Assembly (NCBI GenBank): GCA_036003045.1 | Contig: DASYSS010000098.1 | Span: forward strand, 1 to 42,529 | Direction: 5' to 3' | Length of the DNA stretch: 42,529 bases | From: Gemmatimonadaceae bacterium | Lineage (GTDB): Bacteria > Gemmatimonadota > Gemmatimonadetes > Gemmatimonadales > Gemmatimonadaceae | Shown here: in pieces, positions 1,229 to 34,308 of the stretch | How positions within the stretch are numbered: position 1 is the first letter of the stretch | Layout: the number at the start of each line of letters is the position of its first letter | Notes under the pieces: generated by a model | Seen by the model: the letters and a program-made list of their open reading frames with translations, nothing else | Databases searched by the model: none | Told to the model about the DNA's origin: nothing | Translations under genes and position numbers: made by a program

Positions 1229-2059
1229 ATGGACTATCGAACCATTCAGGTCACGCCCTGCTCGCCGGTCATCGGCGCCGAGATTCGCGGCGTGGACCTT
1301 ACGCAGCCGCTGTCCGACGATCAGTGGAACGAGGTCCTCGACGCGTTCCACGAATACGCGGTGATCTTCTTCCGCGACCAGCGGCCGATGACCCCGGAAC
1401 AACACGTGGCGTTCGGCAAGCGCTTCGGCCCGCTGCATTTCCACCCTGCCGCGCCGCATATGGAGGGTCATCCCGAGGTCTTCGTGATCCACGCACACAA
1501 GGACTCGAAGATCGCCAACGGCGAGTTCTGGCATTCGGACGTGTCGTGCGACGTGGAGCCGCCGCTCGGCTCGATCCTTCAGATCCATCTGCTCCCGCCG
1601 TCTGGTGGCGACACGCTCTTCGCGAGCATGTACGCCGCCTACAACGACCTCTCTCCGCGCATGCAACAATACCTCGAGGGCTTATGCGCGGTGCACGAGT
1701 CCGAGCACATCTACCGGGGCCGCTACTCCGATCGGGGTGTGAAAGACGCGGGCAAAGTCTACCCAACCGCGGTCCACCCGATCATCCGGACGCACGTCGA
1801 CACGGGGAGGAAGTCGCTGTTCGTGAATCGGACGTTCACGACGCGGATCGAAGGCTTGCCGGAGGACGAGAGCAAGGCAGTTCTCCAGTTCCTGTTCAAC
1901 CACGCCGAAAGCCCCTGGTACCAGACCCGTTTTCGCTGGCGCGAGAACGACGTCGCGTTGTGGGACAATCGCTGCACGCAGCACATGGCGATCTGGGACT
2001 ACTGGCCCAATGAGAGAAAAGGAAACCGGGTCACGGTGAAAGGAGAACGGCCGGTCTGA
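1229..2059 (+). CDS. TauD/TfdA-family 2-oxoglutarate-dependent dioxygenase
   Basis: This is a cytosolic Fe(II)/2-oxoglutarate dioxygenase of 276 residues, the usual length for the TauD family. The iron-binding facial triad is visible as H102 and D104 in FWHSDVSC, with the distal H252 in CTQHMAIWDY. R263 lies 11 residues after H252, where TauD has its 2-oxoglutarate-binding arginine, and R267 falls where TauD has its second, substrate-side arginine. The GGDTLFAS segment around 126-133 is also typical. Members hydroxylate small acids such as taurine or 2,4-D, releasing succinate and CO2. No sulfonate transporter or sulfur gene is adjacent, so taurine as substrate is unproven. No Shine-Dalgarno is visible. 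A TA-rich hexamer just before the ATG could mean leaderless expression. Confidence 0.9.
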   Translation: MDYRTIQVTPCSPVIGAEIRGVDLTQPLSDDQWNEVLDAFHEYAVIFFRDQRPMTPEQHVAFGKRFGPLHFHPAAPHMEGHPEVFVIHAHKDSKIANGEFWHSDVSCDVEPPLGSILQIHLLPPSGGDTLFASMYAAYNDLSPRMQQYLEGLCAVHESEHIYRGRYSDRGVKDAGKVYPTAVHPIIRTHVDTGRKSLFVNRTFTTRIEGLPEDESKAVLQFLFNHAESPWYQTRFRWRENDVALWDNRCTQHMAIWDYWPNERKGNRVTVKGERPV

Positions 2060-3965: not shown

Positions 3966-6638
3966 TCAGGTTCTCAGCGCTTCGAGCGGGTCGATCCTCG
4001 TCGCCCGCCTGGCGGGCACATAGCTCGCAACCGCCGCCACCAGCGCCAGGAGCGCCGCGACGATGGCGTACGTCTTCACGTCGTGCGTCGTGATTCCGTA
4101 CATCAGCGCCGCCAGAAACCTCGCGAGCCCGCTCGCGACAACCGTTCCAGCGGCGACTCCTGCGACGCCGAGCACGATCCCCTCGCGGAGCACCATCCAC
4201 TGCAACGCCCCTCCTTGCGCGCCCAGGGCCATACGAACTCCGAATTCGTGCGTGCGCTGCGCGACGAGGTACGCGATCACGCCATAGACGCCGACGATCG
4301 CCAGCGCGAGTCCCGTTCCGCCGAGCAGGATGAGTAGCCACATCGTGAAGCGCGGTTTTGCCTGCAGATCGGAGAATGCCGTCTCCATGGTCGTCGTGCC
4401 GGAAAGCGCGAGATCCGGGTCCACCGTTGCAACCGCGCGGCGGATCGACGGGAGGAGCGTCGAAACCGGGAGCGCACCGCGAATCAGATATGCCATCGAG
4501 AAGTTCTGCGGCCACTGCGCGCTCGGCATGTACATCTCACGCGGCGGATCGACGGCCTTCCCTTTCGCGTGCGTGTCGCCGACCACGCCGACGATCGTGC
4601 GCCACACCGGTCCGCTGTTGGTCGTCGACGCGCAGCTCGTGATCAGCTGCCCCACCGGGTCGGCGTCGCCGTACAGATCGTGCGCCAACCCACGCGTGAC
4701 AATCGCGACGGGCGGCCCGTCGGCCACGTCCGTATTGTTGAAGGCGCGCCCTCGAATGACGGGCTCCCCAATCGCACCGAAGTACGCCGCATTGGCGCCG
4801 CGCATGTTCGCGCCGAAGGCGCCGTCGTCGTGGCCGTTGCTCCCCGGACGCATCGCGTTGCAGTTCCACTGCCAGCCGCGCTGCACCGGTGCGAGCGACG
4901 TGCGCCCCACCGACTTCACACCCGGAATCGCGGCGAGCGCTTCATCCAGCCTGAGAAAGCCCGCCTCGAGCGCTCCGGGCGCCGTGGCGTAGCGCCGCGG
5001 CGGGAGCATGATGTTGGTGATCAACAGATTGTCGGTGGCGAATCCGGGTTGAACGGCCTGCACAAGCATCGCGCTCCGAATCAGGAGCGCAGCGCCGACG
5101 AGCAGCACTTGCACGAGACACAGCTCGCCGACGACGAGCAACCCACGCACGCGATCGCGCGCCGACACCGACGCCTCGCGGCCGCCATCCCGCAGCGTTT
5201 GTTGAAGATCGGTTCGCGCGGCGCGGAGGGCGGGCAAAAGGCCGAAGAGCACCGCGCAGGCCACCGCCACGGCGAACGTGAACGCCACGACCGCCCCATT
5301 GAGCGTTGAATCGCGCAGTCGCGCCATCCCCGCGGGACTCGTGACCAGGAATCGAACGCCGCCCCATGCGACGGCCAGACCGAGAACACCTCCGGTGAGA
5401 GCGAGGATCAAGCTCTCGACGAGCAGTTGACCGACGATGCGGCCGCGTGAGGCGCCCAGCGCACCGCGAATCGCGATCTCGGCTCGCCGCGTCTTCGCCC
5501 GCGCGATCAGCAGGTTGGCGACGTTGGCGCAGGCGATGAGCAGCACGAGCATCACCGCGCCAAGCAGCGTAAGCAGGAGCGTGCGATTGACCGGTCCGAC
5601 CATGTCGTCGGCGTAACGATGGACGTCGACGTCCTCGAACCCCGAGTTGGGATATTCTTTGGCCAGTCGCCGCTCGATCCCGGACAACTCGCTGCGCGCC
5701 TGGTCGATCGACACACCCGGCTTCACCAGCGCATGAACCGACAGCTCGTGATCGCTGTGGTCGTTCCAGCGTGCCGGCGGCACCTTCATCGGCACCCAGA
5801 CCAGCTCCGCCGGCCATCCGATGGTGTGATCATACGGCGCGACGCCGACGACCGTGTAATCGGTCCCGTCCAGCGTGATCTGTTTGCCGAGGATCGACGA
5901 GTCACCGCCGAGTCGCGTGCGCCAGAAGCTCTCGGACACAACAGCCACCGGTGTCGCGCTCTGGCGCTCGTCGTCGGCGCTGTAGTAGCGGCCGAGCACC
6001 GGCGGGATGAACTCGACGTTCCAGAAGCTGCCCGTCGTCGACAGCGTCTTGACCGGCGCCGGATCGCCGCGGCCGGTCATCGTTCGATCGCCGCCGCCCC
6101 AGAACGCGCCAATGACGGCGAGCGAGTGCGCGTTGTCGCGCCACGTGGCGTAATTCCCGAAGGTCACGGAATTGACGTTCGCGCCAGTGCGTTCACCGAC
6201 GGTGATGATGCGGTCGCTGTTCGCGAACGGCAGCGGCTTGAGCATCACGCTGTACACGACACTAAAAATCGCGCTGTTGGCGCCGATGCCGAGTGCCAAC
6301 GTTGCCAACGCGGCGGCGGTGAATCCCGGAGCCTTCCGCAGTTGTCGGACGCCGAACGCGACGTCCTGCTTGATCGTCTGCCACCACTCGGTTCGTTGCA
6401 TCGTCTTCTCCCGCTGCCGGCTGAGGGTGTACAGCGTTTCCCCGATGCGATCGACGTCGCCGAACTTTCGCTTCGCCGCGTCACGCGCGGCGTCGCGCGA
6501 CATTCCCGCCGCTATCAGCTCCTCGATCGTGGATTGCAGATGGAAGTCGAGCTCCTCGTCCACGTCGCGCGTTGGATTCCCGCGGAGGAATCGCGCATAC
6601 CGGCGCCACGCGGGAACGCGGTCGTCGCCCGGGATCAC
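3966..6638 (-). CDS. ADOP-family FtsX/MacB-like orphan permease 1 (PadR-linked)
   Basis: This is an 890-residue permease of the Acidobacterial duplicated orphan permease type, with two MacB_PCD plus FtsX units in one chain. Residues 1-100 form a soluble helical prefix (DVDEELDFHL at 25-34, then GMSRDAARDAAKRKFG). The first membrane helix is at 106-130 (LGIGANSAIFSVV). A periplasmic domain follows, then FtsX helices with LIACANVANLL and IRGALGASRGRIV, then a second periplasmic domain and a final FtsX block (FGVRMALGAQGG). The start is a GTG whose GTGA overlaps the padR stop, which is classic translational coupling. An open frame extends further upstream but lies inside padR, so I rejected it. 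No ABC ATPase is encoded nearby, hence 'orphan'. It probably moves or senses a membrane-active compound; the substrate is unknown. Confidence 0.9.
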   Translation of the reverse strand: MIPGDDRVPAWRRYARFLRGNPTRDVDEELDFHLQSTIEELIAAGMSRDAARDAAKRKFGDVDRIGETLYTLSRQREKTMQRTEWWQTIKQDVAFGVRQLRKAPGFTAAALATLALGIGANSAIFSVVYSVMLKPLPFANSDRIITVGERTGANVNSVTFGNYATWRDNAHSLAVIGAFWGGGDRTMTGRGDPAPVKTLSTTGSFWNVEFIPPVLGRYYSADDERQSATPVAVVSESFWRTRLGGDSSILGKQITLDGTDYTVVGVAPYDHTIGWPAELVWVPMKVPPARWNDHSDHELSVHALVKPGVSIDQARSELSGIERRLAKEYPNSGFEDVDVHRYADDMVGPVNRTLLLTLLGAVMLVLLIACANVANLLIARAKTRRAEIAIRGALGASRGRIVGQLLVESLILALTGGVLGLAVAWGGVRFLVTSPAGMARLRDSTLNGAVVAFTFAVAVACAVLFGLLPALRAARTDLQQTLRDGGREASVSARDRVRGLLVVGELCLVQVLLVGAALLIRSAMLVQAVQPGFATDNLLITNIMLPPRRYATAPGALEAGFLRLDEALAAIPGVKSVGRTSLAPVQRGWQWNCNAMRPGSNGHDDGAFGANMRGANAAYFGAIGEPVIRGRAFNNTDVADGPPVAIVTRGLAHDLYGDADPVGQLITSCASTTNSGPVWRTIVGVVGDTHAKGKAVDPPREMYMPSAQWPQNFSMAYLIRGALPVSTLLPSIRRAVATVDPDLALSGTTTMETAFSDLQAKPRFTMWLLILLGGTGLALAIVGVYGVIAYLVAQRTHEFGVRMALGAQGGALQWMVLREGIVLGVAGVAAGTVVASGLARFLAALMYGITTHDVKTYAIVAALLALVAAVASYVPARRATRIDPLEALRT

Positions 6639-6976
6639 GCCGGCTCTCGCCGCGCGGCCATGATCTTTCCGATCGCGCCGGTGAGCTGGGCCCACGATTC
6701 CGACTCCGCATCGAGCTGGCGCCGTCCGCTCGCCGTGAGTCGATAATACTTCGCGCGACGCCCGTTCTCGGTGAGCGCCCACTGCGCCTTGATCCAGCCC
6801 TTGTTCTCCATGCGATAGAGCGCCGGATACAGCGACCCTTCCTCGACCTGGAGAAGGTCCTCGGTCGTGTGCTGAATCCATCGCGCGAGTCCGAAGCCGT
6901 GCATCGGTCCCCAGGAAAGCGACTTGAGGACGATGAGATCGAGGGTGCCTTGAAGGAGGTCGAGGCCGCGCGTCAT
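6635..6976 (-). CDS. PadR-family transcriptional regulator 1
   Basis: This is a winged-helix DNA-binding repressor of 113 residues. It shows the typical PadR run: LLQGTLDLIVLKSL, then GPMHGFGLARWI, then the recognition/wing segment EEGSLYPALYRMENKGWI and ENGRRAKYYRLTASGRRQL. The C-terminal helix is short, as in the PadR-s1 group. PadR proteins usually repress their own operon and let go on binding a small, often phenolic or antibiotic-like, ligand. The ATG at 6976 is preferred because TAGGTGAG lies just upstream; a GTG two codons earlier is possible. Its last codons overlap the start of ADOP permease 1 by 4 bases, so regulator and permease are translated together. The target is most likely its own promoter at about 6980-7040. 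Confidence 0.92.
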   Translation of the reverse strand: MTRGLDLLQGTLDLIVLKSLSWGPMHGFGLARWIQHTTEDLLQVEEGSLYPALYRMENKGWIKAQWALTENGRRAKYYRLTASGRRQLDAESESWAQLTGAIGKIMAARREPA

Positions 6977-7017
6977 GCTCACCTAGACACTCTAATGGAA
7001 GAGAAGGTTTGGAACGA

Positions 7018-7034
7018 GTCCCGGGCTCCGGGAC
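7018..7034. repeat. Short perfect inverted repeat (hairpin)
   Basis: The arms GTCCCGG (7018-7024) and CCGGGAC (7028-7034) are perfect complements around a 3-base loop. It lies about 45 bases upstream of padR 1 and just outside the 16-bp repeat array. It could be a regulator site or an RNA hairpin on transcripts entering from either side. Confidence 0.5.
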
Positions 7035-7042
7035 GGCCATCT

Positions 7043-7352: not shown

Positions 7353-8579
7353 TTGCCTTTCAGCGGAGTTCGCCAACCACTAAGATTCTCAGGCGTGAGC
7401 ACGCCGAGACCGCCTGTCCTGGTCCTGGGATCGGGTTTGACCGTGCTCGGTGCTATTCGCCTGCTGGGTCGCGCTGGATTTACGCCGCTCGTCGTCAGCG
7501 ACCGGCCGGGCATCGCGAAGAAATCGCGCTGGTTCCGAGCCGCCCCGCGCTCCACCTCGAGCGCCAGTCCGCGAACCGATCTTCCGGAGTGGCTGTCTGG
7601 CCTACCCCTCGACCGCGCAGTTCTGTTGCCCTGCGAGGACGACTGGGCATTGCGCGTCGCGAAGTGTGCGTCGGAAGTCGCCGAGCGTTTTCCGACGAGC
7701 CTTTCGAGCTACGCCTGCTTGGAGACCGTCATCGACAAAGGGCGCCTCGCCTGCGTGCTGGACGACCTCGCGCTTCCGCATCCCCGCACGATCCCGATCG
7801 ATGCCGACGAGGAAGGAGCCCCGCGGCCGCAGTCGGCGCTCGAGCACGTGTTCCTCAAGCCGCGCGATTCCGCCGCGTTTCACCGCCAGTTCGGCGTCAA
7901 GGCGTTTCAGGTGACGACCGACGCCGACCTCGCGGCCAGGCTGGCGGACGTCAGGCGACTCAACCTCGCGGTACAACTACAGGAGTACGTACCCGGGCCG
8001 CCGTCGAACCACTACTACGTCGAGGGCTTCATTGACCGCGACGGACGGCGGCGGGCGCTGTTCGTTCGACGTCGGCTGCGCATGTACCCGGCGGACTTCG
8101 GGAACAGCACCTTCTTCGAGAGCGTCGATCCGTCGGCCGTTTCCGACGCGGTGGCCACGGTGACGACTCTGCTCTCGCACGTCCGCTACCGCGGCATGTT
8201 CAGCGCCGAGTTCAAGCGCGACGCGCGCGACGGTATCTGCCGACTCATCGAGGTCAACGCCCGCCCGTGGTGGTACGTCGAATTCGCCGGCCAATGCGGC
8301 GTGAACGTTTGTGGAATGTCCGTGCTCGACGCGCTGGGCGAGGACGTCCCGGAGACGATCGGCTACCGCCTCGGCAAATCGTGCGTGTATCCGTACTACG
8401 ACTACTTCGCCTGCCGAGAACTGCACGCGAGAGGTGAGCTGACCACGTTCGAGTGGATGTCGTCGTGGCTGCGGTCCACCCAGCCGGTCTTGCGCTGGAG
8501 CGATCCCTTTCCCGCGTTCAGCGAAACGGCCACGCTCCTCAAGCGGCGCGTGGCCTCCTACCTGCGTCGCGCCGGCTGA
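7353..8579 (+). CDS. ATP-grasp domain carboxylate-amine ligase-like protein
   Basis: This is a 408-residue ATP-grasp enzyme of unknown substrate. The N-terminal pre-ATP-grasp domain begins PVLVLGSGLTVLGAIRLLGRAG (about 21-42), Rossmann-like. The ATP-binding part includes a lysine segment (VFLKPRDSAAF, about 167-177) and EYVPGP. The metal/catalytic strand is IEVNARPWW, with E300 and N302. Such enzymes activate a carboxylate as acyl-phosphate and join it to an amine or thiol. Related proteins occur in peptidoglycan (D-Asp ligase-like), peptide natural-product and exopolysaccharide clusters. The start is a TTG placed about 10 bases after AAAGGAAA; a GTG at 7395 would also keep the fold. Its stop overlaps the next gene by one base, making it the first gene of a three-gene operon. 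Confidence 0.82.
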   Translation: MPFSGVRQPLRFSGVSTPRPPVLVLGSGLTVLGAIRLLGRAGFTPLVVSDRPGIAKKSRWFRAAPRSTSSASPRTDLPEWLSGLPLDRAVLLPCEDDWALRVAKCASEVAERFPTSLSSYACLETVIDKGRLACVLDDLALPHPRTIPIDADEEGAPRPQSALEHVFLKPRDSAAFHRQFGVKAFQVTTDADLAARLADVRRLNLAVQLQEYVPGPPSNHYYVEGFIDRDGRRRALFVRRRLRMYPADFGNSTFFESVDPSAVSDAVATVTTLLSHVRYRGMFSAEFKRDARDGICRLIEVNARPWWYVEFAGQCGVNVCGMSVLDALGEDVPETIGYRLGKSCVYPYYDYFACRELHARGELTTFEWMSSWLRSTQPVLRWSDPFPAFSETATLLKRRVASYLRRAG

Positions 8580-9655
8580 TGGGGTGGGACGTCGAGGTCC
8601 GAGCCCTCGAGCAAGATGCGTGGCCAGCGTGGGAGAAGTTCGTGGCGAGCGCGCCCGGAGGAAGCGTCTACAGTCTTCCCGGCTACCTCGACGCGCTGTG
8701 CACCGCCGGCGGCGGACGCTTCCGAATTCTCGGCGTGATGCGCGGCGAGGAGATCGTCGGCGGGGTCGCGCTGTACGAGCGAACCTCGCGCGGCGGGCCG
8801 TTCGTCTCTCCGCGCCTCCTCTTGTACTACAACGGCGTCGTCGTCCGGCGGTATGAGACGTCGTACCCGTCCGAGGCGACCGCGCGCCATGTGAAGATTC
8901 TCACGGCGCTGGAGACGGCGCTGTCGGGAATGCAGCTCGGCAGCATCAACCTCCGCTCGCGTGGGCTGCACGACGTGCGACCGTTCGTTTCGAAGGGATG
9001 GAGCGTCGCGCCGAGCTACAGCTACGTCGTCCCGCTCGACCTCGCGGCGGCGTGGGGAAAAGTCGAACAGAATCTGCGCCGGCTCATCGATCGCGCGCGC
9101 AACGCCGGCATGACGCTGAGCGACGCCGATGATTCGTTCGACGACTTCTTCCGGTTGCACGAGGCGACGCTCGACCGCCATGGCGCGGGTGTCTATTTAC
9201 CTCGCGAGGCGTTCCGCAAGTTCTGCGGCGCGCTCGGGCGAAACGGCTTGGGCAAGCTGTATCAGGTTCGAACAAAGGACGGCGCTCCGGCCGCCGCGCA
9301 GCTGGTCCTGCTCGGACCGCACTCGGTGAGTCATACCGCGTGCGCCGGAGCGGACCCCGAGCTCAACAAACAGGGCGCATCGGCATTCCTGCGTTGGAGC
9401 GCCTTCGAGACGCTGTCCGCGCTCGGCTACAAAGGAAACGACCTCACCGACGCGTCGCTCAATCCGGTCACTCACTTCAAGAGCCAACTCGGCGGGACGC
9501 TCGAGCTTTCGCTCGTGCTCCAGAGTCCGCGCTCGCGTCGCTACGTCTGGAACGAACGGGCCGACACCGCGGTCGCGCGCGCGCGAAGCCGGGCGGGCGC
9601 GCTCGTGAGACGCATCGCGCGGCGCGGTGCAAACGGGAGCGAGGGAAGCGCGTGA
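8579..9655 (+). CDS. FemAB/BioF2-like GNAT-type acyl (aminoacyl) transferase
   Basis: This is a 358-residue protein of the FemAB-like (GNAT_6/BioF2-like) group. These carry two tandem GNAT folds and move an acyl or aminoacyl group onto an amine. Typical traits are the N-terminal W-x-x-F then GGSVYSLPGYLDAL (about 28-41), the RGEEIVGGVAL strand and a basic linker (NLRRLIDRARNAG, about 164-176). The C-terminal half contains HEATLDRHG, then PAAAQLVLLGPHSVSHTACAG, and ends in KSQLGGTLELSLVLQ. Relatives act in cell-wall cross-bridge synthesis and in exosortase-linked exopolysaccharide loci. The ATG at 8579 shares its A with the previous TGA, so translation is coupled. The Arg-rich C-terminus (about 325-352) may help membrane or nucleic-acid contact. 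The substrate is unknown. Confidence 0.8.
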   Translation: MGWDVEVRALEQDAWPAWEKFVASAPGGSVYSLPGYLDALCTAGGGRFRILGVMRGEEIVGGVALYERTSRGGPFVSPRLLLYYNGVVVRRYETSYPSEATARHVKILTALETALSGMQLGSINLRSRGLHDVRPFVSKGWSVAPSYSYVVPLDLAAAWGKVEQNLRRLIDRARNAGMTLSDADDSFDDFFRLHEATLDRHGAGVYLPREAFRKFCGALGRNGLGKLYQVRTKDGAPAAAQLVLLGPHSVSHTACAGADPELNKQGASAFLRWSAFETLSALGYKGNDLTDASLNPVTHFKSQLGGTLELSLVLQSPRSRRYVWNERADTAVARARSRAGALVRRIARRGANGSEGSA

Positions 9656-11355
9656 CTCCGCGCACGGGCGCCGAAGCATTCTGCGATGCGTTGCAACGCG
9701 ACGGCGTCGAGTGCGTGTTCGGGTTGCCCGGCACGCAAACGGTCGAGATCTACGACGCGCTGCGCTCGAGCCGCATCCGTTCCATCGTGCCGACGCACGA
9801 GTTGGCCGCCGCCTTCATGGCCAACGGCTACGCTCGCGCCTCGGGGGCGCCGGGCGTTCTGATCACGATCTCCGGCCCGGGCGTCGCATTCGCGGCCGCC
9901 GGCTTGGTCGAGGCGAAGCTGGACGGCGTTCCACTCGTTCACTTCACGATCGCGCCGGCGACGGGACCGACGGGCGAGCCGTCGTTTCAAGCGTTCGATC
10001 AGGCGGCCTTCGCCCGCCCGATCGTCAAGGCCGTGCTGCGAGCCGACGAGCGCGAAGAAATTCCGAGAGTCGTCCGCGAAGCGCTCACGATGTCGATGGC
10101 GCCGGAGCCGGGCCCGGTATTCGTCGAGTTTTCGGCGCGCGCGTTGCGCGAGCGAGCTACTGATTCAACCGCGACGATCGCCGACGCTGACGAATCGAAG
10201 AGCGCGGCGGATGATCCTTCGCTCGACGAGTTGGTGGAGGCTGTCGCATCGGCGACGCGGCCCGTGTTCTACATCGCGTGCGACTGCAGCGGATCGGCCG
10301 ACGCGCTGGCGAACGTCGCGGCGCTCGGTCGTATTCCGGTGCTCGTCCCCGCACCGTCTCGCGGCGTCATGCCGGAAGACCACGCGTGGTCGCTGTGCTG
10401 CGACGATCAGCGCACGTCGTTCGATCACATCCAGACTGTCGTTTCGAGCGCGGACCTCGTCGTCGTCGTCGGCACGCGGCTCAGCCACGTCGCGACGGCG
10501 GGCTTTCGACTGAAGCTTTCCCCCGAGCGCGTGGTCTGCGTGTCGGATTCGGGCGCGACCCTCCCGCACGGATATTCCGCGCGCGCGTACGCGTCTTCGT
10601 CGCCATCTCGGGCGTTCGCGCGTCTTTTGGCTTCGTCGCCACGCTTCGGATCGACGTGGTCGGCGAACGAGGTGGCGCAATTGCAACGTGGCTTCGGCTC
10701 GGCCACGCCAACGGATCCCCCCGAACCGGTCGTCGAGGGAGGAACGCCGGCCGCCTTCTTCGGCGCGCTGCGCGCCGCGCTCCCGCGCGACGCATTTCTC
10801 GTCACCGACTCGGGTCTCCATCAAGTGCTGGCCCGCCGGCACTACACGGTGTTGTCGCCGCGCGGGTTCTTGTATCCGAGCGACCTTCAGTCGATGGGGT
10901 TCGGGCTTCCCGCGGCGATCGGCGCCAAGCTTGCCGCTCCCTCGCGAACGGTCGTCGTCGTGATGGGTGACGGCGGACTCGCGATGACCGGACTCGAGTT
11001 GCTGACGGCGGCACGCGAGCAGATTCCGGTCGTCGTCGTCGTGTTCAACGACGGCCAGCTCAACCTGATTCGTCTTCAGCAGCTCAAGGAATTCGGACGC
11101 GCGAGCGGCGTCGAGCTGCTCGTTCCCGACCTCGAGCAGTTCGCCGACGCGGTCGGCGCGCGCTATTTCACCGCGGCGAACGATTTCGCGGAGGCGATGG
11201 CGGCCGCGATCGCGGAGAACGGACCCGCGTTGATCGAGGTCGCCGTCGGCGATTCGAGAACAATCGCGGGAGTTCGCGCGAAAAGCCTCGCCCGCGAAAC
11301 CATGCGGAAGGTCGTAGGGCCGGGCGTCGTCAGCTGGCTCAAGCGGCTGCGCTAG
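9652..11355 (+). CDS. Thiamine-diphosphate-dependent enzyme, acetolactate synthase-like
   Basis: This is a 567-residue enzyme with the full POX/IlvB three-domain layout. The N-terminal PYR domain holds FGLPGTQTVEIYDAL (23-37) and the catalytic glutamate E50 in PTHELAAAFMANGYAR. The central domain (about 190-340) is a degenerate TPP_M/Rossmann fold. The C-terminal PP domain has the GDG motif (439-441) followed by N466 in VFNDGQLNLI, which bind Mg-ThDP. Such enzymes decarboxylate a 2-oxo acid and hand on the carbon unit (acetolactate synthase, sulfopyruvate or benzoylformate decarboxylase types). It has no IlvH small subunit or branched-chain gene nearby, so housekeeping valine synthesis is unlikely. 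The GTG start overlaps the preceding stop as GTGA, so it is the third gene of the coupled operon. Confidence 0.87.
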   Translation: MTPRTGAEAFCDALQRDGVECVFGLPGTQTVEIYDALRSSRIRSIVPTHELAAAFMANGYARASGAPGVLITISGPGVAFAAAGLVEAKLDGVPLVHFTIAPATGPTGEPSFQAFDQAAFARPIVKAVLRADEREEIPRVVREALTMSMAPEPGPVFVEFSARALRERATDSTATIADADESKSAADDPSLDELVEAVASATRPVFYIACDCSGSADALANVAALGRIPVLVPAPSRGVMPEDHAWSLCCDDQRTSFDHIQTVVSSADLVVVVGTRLSHVATAGFRLKLSPERVVCVSDSGATLPHGYSARAYASSSPSRAFARLLASSPRFGSTWSANEVAQLQRGFGSATPTDPPEPVVEGGTPAAFFGALRAALPRDAFLVTDSGLHQVLARRHYTVLSPRGFLYPSDLQSMGFGLPAAIGAKLAAPSRTVVVVMGDGGLAMTGLELLTAAREQIPVVVVVFNDGQLNLIRLQQLKEFGRASGVELLVPDLEQFADAVGARYFTAANDFAEAMAAAIAENGPALIEVAVGDSRTIAGVRAKSLARETMRKVVGPGVVSWLKRLR

Positions 11356-11367
11356 ACTCGCTCGCTG

Positions 11368-11388
11368 TCACGGCCGCAGCGGCCGTGA
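11368..11388 (+). terminator. Terminator-like hairpin after the ThDP operon
   Basis: A perfect 9-bp stem, TCACGGCCG / CGGCCGTGA, with loop CAG starts 13 bases after the ThDP stop codon. GAAAATG follows rather than a T-run, so it is not a textbook intrinsic terminator. Its position and GC strength still fit transcript ending or 3' end protection. Confidence 0.5.
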
Positions 11389-13209: not shown

Positions 13210-15861
13210 ATGCAACGCTTCTCATCGAAAGTCCCGGCAGGCGTGCGCCGCCTGGTCCGCTTGCCGTGGACCCGCGAGCGAATGAAACGCGACCTCGAGG
13301 ACGAATGGCGCTTTCACCTCGAGGCTCGAGCGGCCGAGCTCCGCACGCAGAATCCGGAACTGAGCCAATCCGACGCGATGGCCGAGGCACAGCGTCGCTT
13401 TGGGGATCTGCAGGAGCTGCGCGGCGCATTCCAGAAACTCGAAAGGGTCAGCGCGCGCCGGTTGTTCCTGGCCGAGTGGCTCGACGATTGGGCGTACGAC
13501 CTGCGCTATGCCATCCGGCAGTTCAGACGGTCCCCGGGATTCTCGTTCGTCGCCGTGTTCACTCTCGCCATCGGCATCGGCGCCAATGCGGCGATCTTCA
13601 GTGTCGTCAACCGAATCCTGCTCGATCCGGTGCCCTTCCCCGGCGGCAATCGAGTGGTCGCGCTTCGACAGGTGTCGGCGGACGGCGGCCTGATGTTCCC
13701 GATGGCCGGATCGATGGTGCGCGCGTGGGCCGGGCACGCCACGACCATCGAAGCCATCGCGAACCTCGGCGAGCGACAGGTGCATGCCGACGAAGCCGCT
13801 GACCGCGATTCGATTCAGGCTGCCGTGGTCACGTCCGAGTTCATGAGGGTGGTCGGCCTTCGGCCGGCGCTCGGACGATCATTCAACGCCGACGAAGCGC
13901 GGAGCGGGTCCGGCGTGGTGATGATCGGCCACGCGCTCTGGCGCGGCAGCTACGCGGGGCGACGCAGCGTCATCGGCTCGACGATCCATCTCAACGGCAA
14001 ACCTTACGTCATCATCGGCGTGACGCCCACGGGGATGGCGGTGCCGATGTCGCTCAGTCCTCCGCCCGACGTCTGGCTGCCGTACGACCTCAACGCGATT
14101 CAAGGCGCGACGTTTGGAGCGTTCGCGCGACTGCGCCCCGGCGTGACGACGGACGTCGCGTCCGCGGAGTTGCAAGCCGCGGTGCGCGCGCTTCCCGACT
14201 CGATCTCCGACTCGAACCTGCGCGCGCGCGTCGTCCGCCCGCGCGAGTTCGTGGAAGCGCGCGAAGCGACGACGTTGCGCGTGCTGTTCGCCGCCGTGGG
14301 GCTGCTGGTCCTCATCGCGTGCGCGAATGTCGCGAACTTGCTGCTCGCTCGAGCATGGAACCGTCGACGCGAGTTTGCGGTGCGTGTCGCGCTCGGCGCC
14401 GGGCGTTCACGCTTGGTCAGGCAAGTGATGGCGGAAAGCCTGACGCTCGCGGTCGTCGGAGGATCGCTGGGCGTGCTGCTCGCCTGGGAAGGGCTGCGCA
14501 TCATCATCGCGATGCGACCGCCTTCGCTTCAGCATCTCGTGGCCGTTCACCTTGACTCGGCCGTCGTCCTGTGGAGCGCGGCCCTCGCGCTCGGGTCGGG
14601 CCTGCTGTTCGGTGCCGCGCCGGCGATTCTGGCGACCGACTCGATCGGCGACGCCATGCGCGCGAGCGCGGGTGGTGCCGGAGGAGCCGCGAATCTCGTC
14701 GCGCGGAAAATTCGGGGCGCGCTCGTCGTCAGTGAAGTGGCGCTTGCCCTCGTGCTCCTCGTCGGTGCGGGACTGCTGGTTCGTTCCTTTGTCGCCCTCC
14801 AGCACATGGACGTCGGCTTCGACCGGCGCGGTCTCATGTCGATCGGCATCCACTTTGCTCGGGGCGTCGAGGTGCAGCAGCGGGAAGACCTGCGCGCCGC
14901 GTTCGTGGCTCGCGTCGCAGCATTGCCCGGTGTGACCGGAGCGGCAGTCGGTACACTGCCGAGCACCGGGTTCCTCGTCGGCGCCGAAGTACAGCGCGAA
15001 GGCGGGGGCGGTGGCCAGCCATCGCCCGTAAAATCGTTCACGGCGGGCCTCGTGACGCCGAACTATTTCACCGTCTCGCGCATCCCGATCGTCGAGGGCC
15101 GCACTTTCGACTCGACGATCGCCGGTGCTCACGAAGCAGTCGTCAATCGCACGCTCGCGCGCCGGCTCTGGCCCGACGGCCACGCCCTCGGCTCTCGGTT
15201 TCGGACGAGCCCGAAAGGCGATTGGACCACCGTCGTCGGTATCGCGACCGACGTGCGAGTGCCGTGGTTCGGCGGCGACCGAAGCGACCTTCAGATCTAC
15301 ACGCACCCGCCGATCAACATGTTCGCCCTCGGCCTGTTGGTGCGCTCGTCGCTGCCGATCGGCGCGTTGATGCCGATGCTTCGTCACGCCGCCGAGGAGA
15401 CCGACTCGCGGATCACGCTCGGGCAAGCGACCGACGCCGACGAGTTGGTGTCTCAGGCGCTGTCCCCATCGCGGTTCGCGACGACACTGCTCGGGGCGTT
15501 CGGCGCGATCGCGTTGCTGCTGTCCGCCGTCGGGCTGTACGGCGTGGTCGCCTATGCGGTCAGCCAACGCACGCGAGAGATCGGCGTGCGGGTCGCTCTT
15601 GGCGCGAGGCCCGAAGAGATTCGTCGATTGGTGGTGGGGCATGGGGTGCGGCTCGCGACGATCGGCATCGCGATCGGGCTGGCGGGTGCGGCGGCGGTCG
15701 TCGGCATGATGAGAGGCCTGCTCTATGGCGTCGCTCCGCTCGATGTCACGACGTTCGTCAGCATCGCCGTCGTTCTTCTCGCCGTCGCCGCGCTTGCGTC
15801 GCTCGTGCCCGCGCACCGAGCGTTGCGAATCGATCCGATGGACGCGCTCCGCGCCGAATGA
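13210..15861 (+). CDS. ADOP-family FtsX/MacB-like orphan permease 2 (PadR-linked)
   Basis: This is an 883-residue duplicated permease. The N-terminal helical prefix spans about 1-108 (RDLEDEWRFHLEARAAEL at 28-45, then AMAEAQRRFGD). The first membrane helix is at 111-133 (IGIGANAAIFSVV). After the first periplasmic MacB-like domain comes the FtsX block with LIACANVANLLLARAW and VRVALGAGRSRLV. The second periplasmic domain precedes GVVAYAVSQRTREIGVRVALG and the last helices. The pattern is full length and intact, with no ATPase domain. It starts one base after padR 2, and its stop overlaps the next gene as ATGA, so at least four genes are coupled. The two exported proteins downstream may be periplasmic or lipid-anchored partners. 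Substrate and energy source are unknown. Confidence 0.92.
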   Translation: MQRFSSKVPAGVRRLVRLPWTRERMKRDLEDEWRFHLEARAAELRTQNPELSQSDAMAEAQRRFGDLQELRGAFQKLERVSARRLFLAEWLDDWAYDLRYAIRQFRRSPGFSFVAVFTLAIGIGANAAIFSVVNRILLDPVPFPGGNRVVALRQVSADGGLMFPMAGSMVRAWAGHATTIEAIANLGERQVHADEAADRDSIQAAVVTSEFMRVVGLRPALGRSFNADEARSGSGVVMIGHALWRGSYAGRRSVIGSTIHLNGKPYVIIGVTPTGMAVPMSLSPPPDVWLPYDLNAIQGATFGAFARLRPGVTTDVASAELQAAVRALPDSISDSNLRARVVRPREFVEAREATTLRVLFAAVGLLVLIACANVANLLLARAWNRRREFAVRVALGAGRSRLVRQVMAESLTLAVVGGSLGVLLAWEGLRIIIAMRPPSLQHLVAVHLDSAVVLWSAALALGSGLLFGAAPAILATDSIGDAMRASAGGAGGAANLVARKIRGALVVSEVALALVLLVGAGLLVRSFVALQHMDVGFDRRGLMSIGIHFARGVEVQQREDLRAAFVARVAALPGVTGAAVGTLPSTGFLVGAEVQREGGGGGQPSPVKSFTAGLVTPNYFTVSRIPIVEGRTFDSTIAGAHEAVVNRTLARRLWPDGHALGSRFRTSPKGDWTTVVGIATDVRVPWFGGDRSDLQIYTHPPINMFALGLLVRSSLPIGALMPMLRHAAEETDSRITLGQATDADELVSQALSPSRFATTLLGAFGAIALLLSAVGLYGVVAYAVSQRTREIGVRVALGARPEEIRRLVVGHGVRLATIGIAIGLAGAAAVVGMMRGLLYGVAPLDVTTFVSIAVVLLAVAALASLVPAHRALRIDPMDALRAE

Positions 15862-19636: not shown

Positions 19637-22096
19637 TCAGTCCGTCCAGCGCCAATCCCGAATCTGGGGGAGATCCTCGAAGTGCTCGCGCGTGTACGCG
19701 GTGGCCTGCTCGAGGTGCTTGCTCAACTCTTCGGTCAGGTCGTGCGCGCGACGCGCCGACAGCGGTGAAAATCGGATGGCGAGAGCAGCGAGATGGAAAC
19801 GGCTCATGTGGTTCAGCGCGACCATGTCGAATGGCGTGGTGGTCGTTCCCTGCTCGTTGAACCCCCTCACGTGAAAGCGCGACGGATCGGGTCGCCGGTG
19901 CACCAGCTGGTGCACGGCGAACTGGTAGCCGTGGAACGCGAAGACCACCGGCTTGTCGCGCGTGAACAGGGCGACGAACCGCTCATCCGACATTCCGTGC
20001 GGATGGATGGACGGCGCGAAGAGGCTCATGAGGTCCACGACGTTCACGACCCGCACGCGCAGCTCCGGAGCGAGGCGGCGCAGCCACCACGCCGCGGCCA
20101 CCGTCTCCAGCGTCGGCGTGTCGCCGGCACACGCGAGGACCACGTCCGGTTCGTCCTCGGTGTTCCCGGCCCATGCCCACGTCGATGCGCCGGCCGCCGC
20201 GTGCTCGCACGCCGCGTCGATCGACAACCATTGGAGCTGCGGCTGCTTGTCGATGACGATCAGGTTGACGTAGTTGCGCGAGCGCAGGCAGTGGTCGGCG
20301 ACGGACAGCAGCGTGTTCGCGTCGGGCGGCAGATAGATGCGCGCGACGGTACCGCGCTTGGACAACATCACGTCGATGAGCCCGGGCCCTTGGTGGCTGA
20401 ACCCGTTGTGGTCGTTCCGCCAGCATGTCGACGTCAGAAGGATGTTCAGCGAGGCGACGGGCGCGCGCCACGGCAGATTCACCGCCTCCTCGAGCCACTT
20501 CGTATGCTGCACGATCATCGACGCGGCGACCATTGCGAACGACTCGTAGGTCACGAACAAGCCGTGCCGGCCGGTGAGCAAATACCCCTCCAGCCAACCT
20601 TCGCAGAGATGCTCGCTCAAGACTTCCATCACGCGCCCGTCGGCGCTCACGTGATCGTCGATGGAGAGGCGTCGCTCGACGAGGCACCGCGACTCGACCT
20701 CGAACACCGCGGACAGCCGGTTCGAGTCCGTCTCGTCGGGACAGAAGAGGCGAAAGTTCGACGGGGCGGCGTTGGCGAGAAATGTGTCGCGCAACAGCTC
20801 GCCCAGCGTACGCGTCGACTCTCGCCGAACATGCGCCGGCTTCGGCACGTCGACGGCGTAGCGGCGAAAATCGGGCAGCACGAGCGGGGCAAGCAGACGC
20901 CCCCCGTTGGCGTGCGGATTTGCGCCCATGCGGCGATCGCCGCGCGGCGAGAGGGTCGCCAACTCGCCGACGAGGCCGCCCTGATCGGTAAACAACTCCT
21001 CCGGGCGGTAACTGCGCATCCAATCGTCGAGCGCCTGCAACTGGTCCGGGTCGCTTCGCGCATTCGGCAGAGGCACCTGGTGCGCGCGGAACGTGCCTTC
21101 AACCGGTTTGTCCCCGACGACTTTCGGTCCCGTCCACCCTTTCGGCGTGCGCAGCACGATCGCCGGCCAGGTGGCGCGTGCACGAATGCTCGACGCGCCG
21201 CCGATGCCCGCGCGCGCATCCGATTGAATCGCTCGAATTCGATCGAAGCATTCGTCGAGCACGGCGGCAAGACTCTGATGGACTTCGGCGGGCACGTCGC
21301 CCGACACGACGAACGGCTCATAGCCCTGGGCTCTCAACAACTCGCAGACCGCTGTGTCGTCCTCGCGGCCCAGGACGGTCGGCCCACTGATCTTGTACCC
21401 GTTGAGGTGGAGCACAGGCAGCACCGCGCCGTCGCGCGCCGGATTCAAGAAACTCGTGCACTTCCACGACCCCTCGAGCGGCGCGGTTTCGGCTTCGCCG
21501 TCGCCGACCACGGCCACCACGGTGAGGTCCGGGTTGTCGAACGCCGCGCCGAACGCGTGCACCAACACGTACCCCAACTCGCCGCCTTCGTGGATCGACC
21601 CTGGCGTGGGAACGCTGACGTGGCTCGGAATTCCGCCGGGCGTCGAGAATTGTCGAAACAACCGTCGCATCCCGGCGATGTCTCGCGTGACTTCGGCGTA
21701 GACCTCCGAGTAGGTTTCCTCGAGGTACACGTTGGCCACGAGCGCCGGACCGCCGTGTCCCGGACCGGCGAGATAAATCACGTTCGCGTCCCGCTCGACG
21801 ATCACTCGATTCAGATGCGCGTAGAGCAGGCTCAAGCCGGGCGACGTCCCCCAATGTCCGAGAAGGCGGGGCTTGATGTGCTCCCGACGAAGCGGCTCCC
21901 TGAGCAGCGGATTCTCCTGAAGGAAGATCTGCCCGACCGTCAGATAGTTCGCGGCCGCCCAATACCGGTCTATGCGGCGCAGCGCGTCGTCGCCGAGCGG
22001 GCCGCGCACGCGGCGCGTCTCCGCCACGGCCGGCTCTTCGGTCGCGAGCACGGCGCTCGAGACGCTTTCATCGAATACGAATCGTGAGTCCGACAC
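19637..22096 (-). CDS. xfp: Xylulose-5-phosphate/fructose-6-phosphate phosphoketolase
   Basis: This ThDP enzyme splits xylulose-5-P (or fructose-6-P) with phosphate into acetyl phosphate plus glyceraldehyde-3-P (or erythrose-4-P). At about 819 residues it has family length. Diagnostic blocks include [16 protein letters not shown] (44-59), GHWGTSPGL (80-88), [16 protein letters not shown] (111-126), the ThDP motif [14 protein letters not shown] (198-211) with N232 in [11 protein letters not shown], then [11 protein letters not shown] and [15 protein letters not shown]. The N-terminus is uncertain. I place the start at GTG 22096; another GTG at 22051 would also precede the conserved part. An open frame continues upstream into the acetate kinase gene and is not credible. 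It faces the acetate kinase gene head to head, 51 bases away, and that enzyme uses its acetyl phosphate. Confidence 0.95.
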
Positions 22097-22147
22097 GGCC
22101 CACCCCCGCCCTCGGCTGACGGTACCTTCTTCGTCGAATCCCTCTCC

Positions 22148-23392
22148 GTGCGCATCCTCGTCCTCAACGTCGGTTCGTCGAGCCTCAAGTTTCAGCTCGT
22201 CGAAACGGATTCCGACGCAATCGCAAACCATCACGACCGGCGGCTCGCCCGCGGGCAGATCGAACGAATTGGCGGCGAGGCAATTTGCACGCTCGCTCGC
22301 GAGGGCCAACCGGCCGCCACGACCACGGCCGCCCTTCGCGACCATGACGCCGCCATTGCCTACCTCATCAATTGGCTCACGACCGCACAGCGCGCCGCGC
22401 CGGCCGTCGTCACGCGCGTCGGCGACATCGACGCCGTTGGACATCGTGTCGTCCACGGCGGAGAGCGCTTCACCGCGTCGACCCTCGTCACCGACGAAGT
22501 CCAACGCCACATCGAAGCGCTGATCGACCTGGCGCCGCTCCACAACCCGCACAATCTGCGAGGCATTCAAGCTGCACGAGCCGTGCTCGGAGCGGGCGTC
22601 CCGCAAGTCGCGGTGTTCGACACGGCATTTCACCAGACGCTTCCCGAGCGTGCCTACCTGTACGCGATTCCCTATCAGCTCTATCGCCGCTACCGGGTGC
22701 GGCGCTACGGCTTCCATGGCACGTCGCACCGCTACGTGGCATACCGCTACCGTGAGCTGACCGGCCGCGCTCGTGACAAGACGCGCATCATCACGCTCCA
22801 CCTTGGGAACGGCGCATCGGCGTGTGCGGTCGTCCAGGGCGACTCAGCCGACACGTCGATGGGATTCACGCCACTGGAAGGTCTGGTCATGGGCACGCGA
22901 TCCGGCGACCTCGACCCTGCCGTCCTCGATTTCGTCGCGACGAAGGAAGGGCTCGACCTTCGCGAAGTGGATCTGCTGCTGAACAAACAGTCGGGCCTAC
23001 TCGGGATTTCCGGCCTCACGTCCGACATGCGCGAGCTGATCGCCGAGGAGGGCGAGAACGGCGACCGCCGCGCCGCGCTCGCCATCGAGATCTTCTGCTA
23101 CCGCGTCAAGAAATATCTTGGCGCCTATCTCGCGGCGATGAACGGCGCCGACGCGATCGTGTTCGCCGGCGGCATCGGTGAACACTCCCCGATGATCCGT
23201 GCACGAATCTGCGCGGATCTCGATTGGCTCGGCATTCGCGCCGACGGCGCCGCCAACCAGAAACTCGACGGCGGCGAGGGTCGGTTCGATGCGAGCGGCT
23301 CACGCGTCGAGCTGTGGGTGATTCCGACCGACGAAGAGTTGCTGATCGCCCGCGACACATGGCGCGTCGTGAACGGAGCGACACCGCCATGA
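22148..23392 (+). CDS. ackA: Acetate kinase
   Basis: This cytosolic enzyme interconverts acetyl phosphate + ADP and acetate + ATP. The 414 residues are normal length for the family. It begins with the phosphate-binding [14 protein letters not shown]. It carries VGHRVVHGG, the substrate/catalytic region [12 protein letters not shown], the signature [13 protein letters not shown], then [32 protein letters not shown] and [10 protein letters not shown] near the C-terminus. The start is GTG, fixed by the conserved N-terminus. Phosphoketolase is transcribed away on the other strand, 51 bases off, so both promoters must share this short gap or lie inside the partner's coding sequence. Together the two enzymes yield ATP and acetate from sugar phosphates without full glycolysis. 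Confidence 0.96.
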
Positions 23393-25820: not shown

Positions 25821-25852
25821 GTGCACTCCCTCCCCCGTCACAGACAGCGTGG

Positions 25853-34190: not shown

Positions 34191-34308
34191 CGGCTCGCTC
34201 CGTGTCGGAGTGGGTGGGTCACGGAGCCTACGGCGGTGATCCGGCTGAAGTTTCCGCGGTCGCGATCGAAGAGTCGCGCGCTCGGGAACGGGCTCCGCCC
34301 AAAGTCCA

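What the first reader, a model, noticed from the sequence alone, without database searches (positions are those of the whole stretch)
7353..11355. Coupled operon of ATP-grasp ligase, FemAB-like transferase and ThDP enzyme with no known pathway
Three genes overlap by 1 and 4 bases and end at a hairpin, so they act together. A ThDP enzyme can make a new carbon skeleton from a 2-oxo acid. An ATP-grasp enzyme can join a carboxylate to an amine. A FemAB-like transferase can move an acyl or aminoacyl group to an amine. This is a compact recipe for a small modified amino acid, a peptide-like cofactor or a cell-wall/exopolysaccharide substituent. No ilv small subunit, NRPS or peptidoglycan gene is adjacent. 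I do not recognise a described pathway with this trio.
Basis: partly seen in the sequence, partly recalled or inferred. Interest (0 to 1): 0.75.

Follow-up and report, generated by a model that had tools for sequence, protein, structure and literature searches.

The report
Three-enzyme kit probably decorating surface polysaccharide
Three tightly coupled enzyme genes, found together in scattered members of several bacterial phyla and often beside surface-polysaccharide genes, probably make and attach an amide-linked decoration to a cell-surface sugar polymer; the exact chemical product is unknown.

Summary
ATP-grasp (7395 or 7353–8579), FemAB-like (8579–9655) and ThDP (9652–11355) genes overlap by 1 and 4 bases and are followed by a 9-bp hairpin without a T-run. 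This is a real, conserved module: 11 of 12 genomes carrying this FemAB subfamily have all three genes adjacent, usually with the FemAB/ThDP 4-base overlap, in Gemmatimonadota, Zixibacteria, Acidobacteriota, Thermoleophilia and an unnamed phylum. It is sparse (5 of 346 and 3 of 396 genomes in two phyla). The FemAB model matches tRNA-dependent aminoacyl transferases (FemX, Sba18; Z 23–27) far better than CoA-dependent GNATs and keeps the catalytic FK motif. The ThDP protein is acetolactate-synthase-like but not a branched-chain enzyme: the host has no ilvC and no authentic AHAS, and genomes that have those also keep this gene. Elsewhere the module often sits beside exopolysaccharide genes (XrtA-like export, glycosyltransferases, deacetylases), though not in this window. 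Best reading: an accessory cassette building an amide-linked aminoacyl/acyl cap on a polysaccharide amine. Nearest characterised precedent: the FemAB + ATP-grasp pair of C. difficile type B flagellin glycan. A PKS/NRPS-linked copy keeps a small-molecule product possible.

The parts
7395..8579 (+). ATP-grasp carboxylate-amine ligase-like protein (P0001); the alternative TTG start at 7353 adds 14 residues
   Evidence: 13-member subfamily alignment with invariant K115, K155, E197, E272, E286, N288; model pLDDT 90.5 matching 2pn1 Z 25.6, PurK Z about 23-26, L-amino acid ligase 3vot Z 23.7, PylC Z 23.6
8579..9655 (+). FemAB/FemX-type double-GNAT transferase (P0002), PF13480
   Evidence: Pfam E 2e-14, best NCBIfam TIGR03019 pepcterm_femAB E 4e-11, far under its cut-off; model pLDDT 83.6 matching FemX Z 26.9, Sba18 Z 26.6, FemA Z 24.7; invariant F300-K301
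9652..11355 (+). ThDP-dependent enzyme of the acetolactate-synthase superfamily (P0003), with a C-terminal tail beyond the Pfam domains that carries an invariant Arg (R552)
   Evidence: TPP_enzyme_N/M/C; invariant E50 and GDGG at 439-442; under the NCBIfam AHAS cut-offs; trio orthologues score 595-887 bits against A3, other AHAS-like proteins at most 365
8577..8581 (+). 1-base stop/start overlap TGATG (ATP-grasp/FemAB junction)
9652..9655 (+). 4-base stop/start overlap GTGA (FemAB/ThDP junction); a 4-base overlap recurs in most orthologous trios
11368..11388 (+). 9-bp G+C-rich hairpin after the ThDP gene; no T-run

Best explanation
The trio is an accessory cassette that makes and installs an amide-linked cap (aminoacyl, or acyl-aminoacyl) on a free amino group of a surface polysaccharide or its lipid-linked repeat unit. 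Proposed order: the ThDP enzyme decarboxylates a 2-oxo acid and, like its acetolactate-synthase relatives, ligates the two-carbon or larger unit to a second carbonyl, giving a small hydroxy- or oxo-acid. The FemX-type protein transfers an amino acid, most likely from aminoacyl-tRNA, to an amine of the glycan, possibly one freed by a polysaccharide deacetylase such as those encoded beside several copies. The ATP-grasp ligase activates a carboxylate as an acyl phosphate and joins it to an amine to finish the cap. Shown: three co-inherited genes; fold and key residues of the ligase and the transferase; ThDP domain architecture and catalytic Glu; polysaccharide gene neighbourhoods in several genomes. 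Inferred: substrates, donor, order of steps, and that the glycan is an exopolysaccharide.
For: Conserved module: all three genes adjacent in 11 of 12 genomes that hold the FemAB subfamily; distance matrices correlate (FemAB-ThDP r 0.78, Mantel p 0.005; ATP-grasp-FemAB r 0.56, p 0.007). Neighbourhoods: L057 (Acidobacteria) lies next to SLBB export, Wzz/GNVR, tyrosine autokinase, XrtA-type ATPase and polysaccharide deacetylase; L060 and L092 have a divergent NodB-like deacetylase and a downstream GT4-type glycosyltransferase; L049 has an overlapping homologue of that deacetylase plus dTDP-sugar genes; L078 has GT4, GT2 and UDP-sugar dehydrogenase; L080 has GT4 and asnB. GT4 within 10 kb at 4 or more of 9 loci, p about 0.02. 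ATP-grasp-only orthologues in L054, L055 and L059 are also in EPS-like settings. The FemAB model's nearest structures are tRNA-dependent FemX, FemA and Sba18/Sbb17, Z 23-27, against 16 or less for CoA-dependent GNATs; the FK motif matches catalytic Lys305 of FemX and Lys329 of DhpH-C (PMC12945691). Precedent: in C. difficile type B flagellin the ATP-grasp mutant loses the taurine-Ala-Gly-capped Fuc3N, and a FemAB gene adjoins it (PMC5207245, PMC5207246).
Against: No polysaccharide gene was recognised in this window; L052 shows no such neighbour either, and L085 no clear one. The GT4 enrichment alone is modest. L079 (G212) lies beside a PKS and an NRPS-type adenylation protein, and the ThDP orthologue of G373 beside a phosphopantetheinyl transferase, which points to carrier-protein chemistry in some lineages. 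Six genomes have the ATP-grasp without this FemAB, so not all three steps are obligatory together. No substrate was tested.
Confidence: 0.55

Rival explanations
1. The trio makes a small, freely released peptide-like metabolite: the ThDP enzyme builds an unusual acid, the ATP-grasp ligase forms a dipeptide-like amide, and the FemX-type protein adds an amino acid from tRNA, as in dehydrophos or streptothricin-type pathways.
For: The FemAB model is close to Sba18/Sbb17, natural-product enzymes; DhpK and Orf11 are FemX-like natural-product enzymes (PMC12945691); G212 carries the trio next to PKS and NRPS-type genes; the window itself has no recognised glycan genes.
Against: Most other loci with usable context are polysaccharide loci. 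No exporter or resistance gene is consistently attached.
Confidence: 0.25
2. The FemX-type protein modifies peptidoglycan or a lipid (as FemX or MprF do), and the other two enzymes make the donor or acceptor.
For: Fold similarity to FemX and MprF.
Against: No mur, peptidoglycan or lipid-modification gene was seen beside the trio in the window or in the loci examined. The distribution is sparse (5 of 346, 3 of 396 genomes), unlike an envelope housekeeping step.
Confidence: 0.08
3. The ThDP gene is a branched-chain acetolactate synthase and its neighbours are incidental.
For: Its closest solved relatives are acetolactate synthases.
Against: Below the NCBIfam AHAS cut-offs; the host and its genus mates have no ilvC and the host has no other AHAS-like match; genomes with authentic AHAS and ilvC (G163, G212, G372) carry this gene as well; ThDP and FemAB stay adjacent across phyla.
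Confidence: 0.03
4. A neighbour of the best explanation: the cap goes on a protein-linked glycan (for example a flagellin or S-layer glycan), not on an exported polysaccharide.
For: The only characterised FemAB + ATP-grasp precedent is a flagellin glycan (PMC5207245, PMC5207246).
Against: No flagellar or S-layer gene was recognised next to any copy examined; Wzz, SLBB export, tyrosine autokinase and deacetylase genes point to exported polysaccharide.
Confidence: 0.09

Closest known systems
FemAB (CDR20291_0244) + ATP-grasp (CDR20291_0245) pair of Clostridioides difficile type B flagellin glycan
   Same: A FemAB-family acyltransferase and an ATP-grasp ligase side by side; the ATP-grasp mutant loses the peptidylamido-sugar; the cap is taurine-Ala-Gly amide-linked to an aminosugar (PMC5207245, PMC5207246).
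XrtA/PEP-CTERM exopolysaccharide loci with FemAB (TIGR03019) and deacetylase genes
   Same: P0002's best NCBIfam model is TIGR03019; L057 lies next to relatives of the XrtA chain-length, ATPase, tyrosine kinase and export proteins; a deacetylase next to FemAB occurs in a described locus (Rubrivivax, PMC3684757).
   Different: P0002 scores 42 bits against a cut-off of 260; neighbouring L057 genes are also below XrtA cut-offs; no ThDP gene was found described in that context.
tRNA-dependent FemX/FemA and natural-product transferases (Sba18/Sbb17, Orf11, DhpH-C)
   Same: Same double-GNAT fold (Z 23-27 for FemX, FemA, Sba18, Sbb17) and the FK motif.
   Different: 11-17% identity; acceptor and tRNA dependence untested; the Asn three residues before the Phe in DhpH-C is Val here.
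Acetolactate synthase / acetohydroxyacid synthase superfamily
   Same: Three TPP domains, catalytic Glu, GDGG motif, 'DxGxHQ' segment.
   Different: Separate group by score, C-terminal tail, no small-subunit gene beside it, not linked to ilv genes.
ATP-grasp ligases 2pn1, Bacillus licheniformis L-amino acid ligase (3vot), PylC, PurK
   Same: Same fold; ATP and metal residues conserved.
   Different: 10-19% identity; substrate pockets not comparable with these tools.

Membership tests
FemABX tRNA-dependent aminoacyl transferases | Tandem GNAT fold closest to FemX/FemA | tested here: met
   Z 26.9 FemX, 26.6 Sba18, 24.7 FemA; next group (MprF etc.) at 18.5 or less
FemABX tRNA-dependent aminoacyl transferases | Phe-Lys motif with the catalytic Lys | tested here: met
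   F300-K301 invariant in 7 of 7, aligned with the FK of Sba18; role from PMC12945691
FemABX tRNA-dependent aminoacyl transferases | Use of aminoacyl-tRNA as donor | not testable with these tools
   needs enzymology
XrtA/PEP-CTERM FemAB (TIGR03019) | Score above the curated cut-off | tested here: not met
   42.4 bits against 260.35
XrtA/PEP-CTERM exopolysaccharide system | Adjacent XrtA-type EPS genes in the same locus | tested here: inconclusive
   Present beside L057 as relatives below cut-offs; absent in the window; the host has an exosortase on another contig
Acetohydroxyacid synthase (IlvB, TIGR00118) | Score above the equivalog cut-off | tested here: not met
   272.6 bits against 538.35
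Acetohydroxyacid synthase (IlvB, TIGR00118) | Host has the next pathway enzyme, ilvC | tested here: not met
   no ilvC in G000 or genus mates G001-G005
ATP-grasp superfamily | ATP-grasp fold with conserved Lys and acidic/Asn metal ligands | tested here: met
   invariant K115, K155, E272, E286, N288
C. difficile type B-like peptidylamido-glycan pathway | Sequence orthology of FemAB and ATP-grasp genes and a peptide-capped aminosugar product | not tested
   C. difficile sequences were not in the collections used; product unknown

The most novel reading that the evidence does not exclude
A previously undescribed three-enzyme route that uses aminoacyl-tRNA plus a ThDP-made hydroxy- or oxo-acid to put a peptide-like cap on Gram-negative surface polysaccharide, diverting tRNA-bound amino acids and central 2-oxo acids into glycan chemistry.
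Probability: 0.3. Interest if true: 0.7.

Novelty: new variant of a known kind. Interest (0 to 1): 0.5.

Why it matters
If right, it adds a ThDP carboligase to the FemAB + ATP-grasp way of capping glycans and predicts an unusual amide-linked substituent on exopolysaccharides of soil and other environmental bacteria whose polysaccharides are barely studied. It also gives a testable role to one clade of FemAB-like genes in bacteria where FemAB is not tied to peptidoglycan cross-bridge genes.

Tried and rejected
Branched-chain biosynthesis: rejected. Phosphonate route (phosphonopyruvate decarboxylase): not favoured, because the protein has the central TPP_enzyme_M domain and its best profiles are acetolactate-synthase-like; PEP mutase was not searched for. 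Housekeeping or chance neighbours: rejected by cross-phylum conservation. Intrinsic terminator: the hairpin is real but lacks a T-run. RNA element or riboswitch: no Rfam match in the window. Papers on the trio: none found. BbmA/CsmA, ThDP relatives with solved structures: no usable paper in the library. Plasmid collection: only distant ATP-grasp hits, at most 27.5% identity among those listed. G490 is the one FemAB genome without the module: no ATP-grasp in the 16 kb fetched around the FemAB gene, only a distant ThDP gene.

Full report
Observation. Three + strand genes lie at 7395 (or TTG 7353)-8579, 8579-9655 and 9652-11355. The junctions are TGATG (1-base overlap) and GTGA (4-base overlap). 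A 9-bp G+C hairpin at 11368-11388 follows, but no T-run, and the terminator scan does not call it. P0002 is PF13480; P0003 has the three TPP domains; P0001 has only weak sequence hits to ATP-grasp families. Its predicted fold settles that: pLDDT 90.5, nearest structures PurK, 2pn1, an L-amino acid ligase and PylC at Z about 24-26, with the ATP and metal residues invariant over 13 orthologues.

It is a real module. P0001 orthologues in the species collection brought in the trio in the same order from other Gemmatimonadota, a Zixibacteria MAG, a Thermoleophilia MAG, an Acidobacteria MAG and an unplaced bacterium. Searching with the FemAB alignment found it in 5 of 346 genomes of the host phylum, 3 of 396 genomes of the phylum of the Acidobacteria MAG and 2 of 46 of the phylum of the unplaced bacterium. 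Of 12 genomes with this FemAB (host, G124, G271, G163, G212, G367, G371, G372, G375, G653, G780, G490), 11 have ATP-grasp and ThDP genes next to it; only G490 does not. In G271 the ThDP gene is cut by the contig end. G212 has the order FemAB, ATP-grasp, ThDP. The FemAB/ThDP 4-base overlap recurs in most copies. Sequence distances of the three proteins correlate over nine loci. Six genomes have the ATP-grasp without this FemAB; one of them has ATP-grasp and ThDP genes adjacent (L049). These are mostly MAGs, so the phylum labels carry the usual risk of misbinning.

The transferase. The FemAB model (pLDDT 83.6) is closest to FemX, FemA and the tRNA-dependent Sba18/Sbb17 (Z 23-27); MprF-type enzymes follow at about 17-18 and CoA-dependent GNATs at 16 or less. 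The FK motif is invariant and aligns with that of Sba18; the corresponding Lys is the catalytic residue in FemX and DhpH-C (PMC12945691). Fold and motif favour an aminoacyl-tRNA donor but do not prove it. The best NCBIfam model is the XrtA-associated FemAB, far below its cut-off.

The ThDP enzyme. It keeps the catalytic Glu and GDGG, is nearest to acetolactate synthases, but is below the AHAS cut-offs. Trio orthologues score 595-887 bits against their own profile; all other AHAS-like proteins in the same genomes score 365 or less. The host has no other AHAS-like match and no ilvC, and its genus mates lack ilvC too, whereas G163, G212 and G372 have true AHAS and ilvC besides the trio gene. So it is a separate enzyme, presumably a 2-oxo-acid decarboxylase/carboligase (inference).

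Neighbourhood. L057 lies beside export (SLBB), chain-length (Wzz/GNVR), tyrosine autokinase, an XrtA-type ATPase and a polysaccharide deacetylase, with a kinase/sigma-54 regulator pair on the other side. L060 and its relative L092 have a divergent NodB-like deacetylase and a downstream GT4-type glycosyltransferase (Pfam-tested in L060, by sequence reading in L092). L049 has a homologue of that deacetylase overlapping the ATP-grasp gene, and dTDP-sugar genes. L078 has GT4, GT2 and UDP-sugar dehydrogenase; L080 has GT4 and asparagine synthase. ATP-grasp-only orthologues L054, L055 and L059 are in EPS-like settings with deacetylase, polysaccharide export and glycosyltransferase-like genes (read from sequence, not all Pfam-tested). 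L079 is beside a PKS and an NRPS-type adenylation protein, a Gfo/Idh-epimerase fusion and a GT2-like protein. In G373 the ThDP orthologue is followed by a phosphopantetheinyl transferase. L052 and the window have no recognised polysaccharide gene nearby. A chance test on GT4 genes alone gives 4 or more of 9 loci, p about 0.02: modest support. The host itself has an EPS-type locus on contig C85 with export-like, GT4, rml-like, DUF3473 deacetylase, ATP-grasp and FemAB genes, and an exosortase on C46.

Mechanism. The nearest worked example is C. difficile type B flagellin: a FemAB gene and an ATP-grasp gene are adjacent, the ATP-grasp mutant loses the terminal sugar, and that sugar is Fuc3N carrying taurine-Ala-Gly (PMC5207246 and PMC5207245). 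By analogy the trio would put an aminoacyl or acyl-aminoacyl cap on a glycan amine, the ThDP enzyme supplying an acid. A neighbouring deacetylase could free that amine. Substrates and order of steps are inference.

Judgement. The module is real and undescribed as a trio in the papers searched, but each enzyme is of a known class and the likely purpose, decorating a surface glycan, is of a known kind. Novelty: new variant of a known kind.

Noticed in passing
3966-7040 (-), 13210-15861 (+), 23403-25841 (-), 31767-34553 (-): Four MacB_PCD/FtsX permease ORFs in one 42-kb window; a PadR-like regulator ORF (6635-6982, -) overlaps the first.
   Followed up: no
host genome G000 and genus mates G001-G005: No ilvC, and no authentic acetohydroxyacid synthase over cut-off: branched-chain amino acid synthesis by the usual route appears absent in this genus, though present in G008 and G009 of the same family.
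   Followed up: partly
19637-22801 (-): Phosphoketolase (XFP); the longest ORF has about 270 extra N-terminal residues, probably a wrong start.
   Followed up: no
34309-36753 (+): Protein combining multihaem cytochrome c motifs with TPR repeats.
   Followed up: no
1229-2059 (+): TauD-family dioxygenase about 5 kb upstream of the trio; not noticed beside the trio in other genomes examined.
   Followed up: no
L088 2995-5517: Acidobacterial ThDP orthologue (572 aa) without FemAB or ATP-grasp beside it, followed by a 4'-phosphopantetheinyl transferase.
   Followed up: partly
L079 4-7461: PKS with KS, AT, carrier protein and class-III aminotransferase domains, next to an NRPS-type adenylation protein, beside the G212 copy of the trio.
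   Followed up: partly
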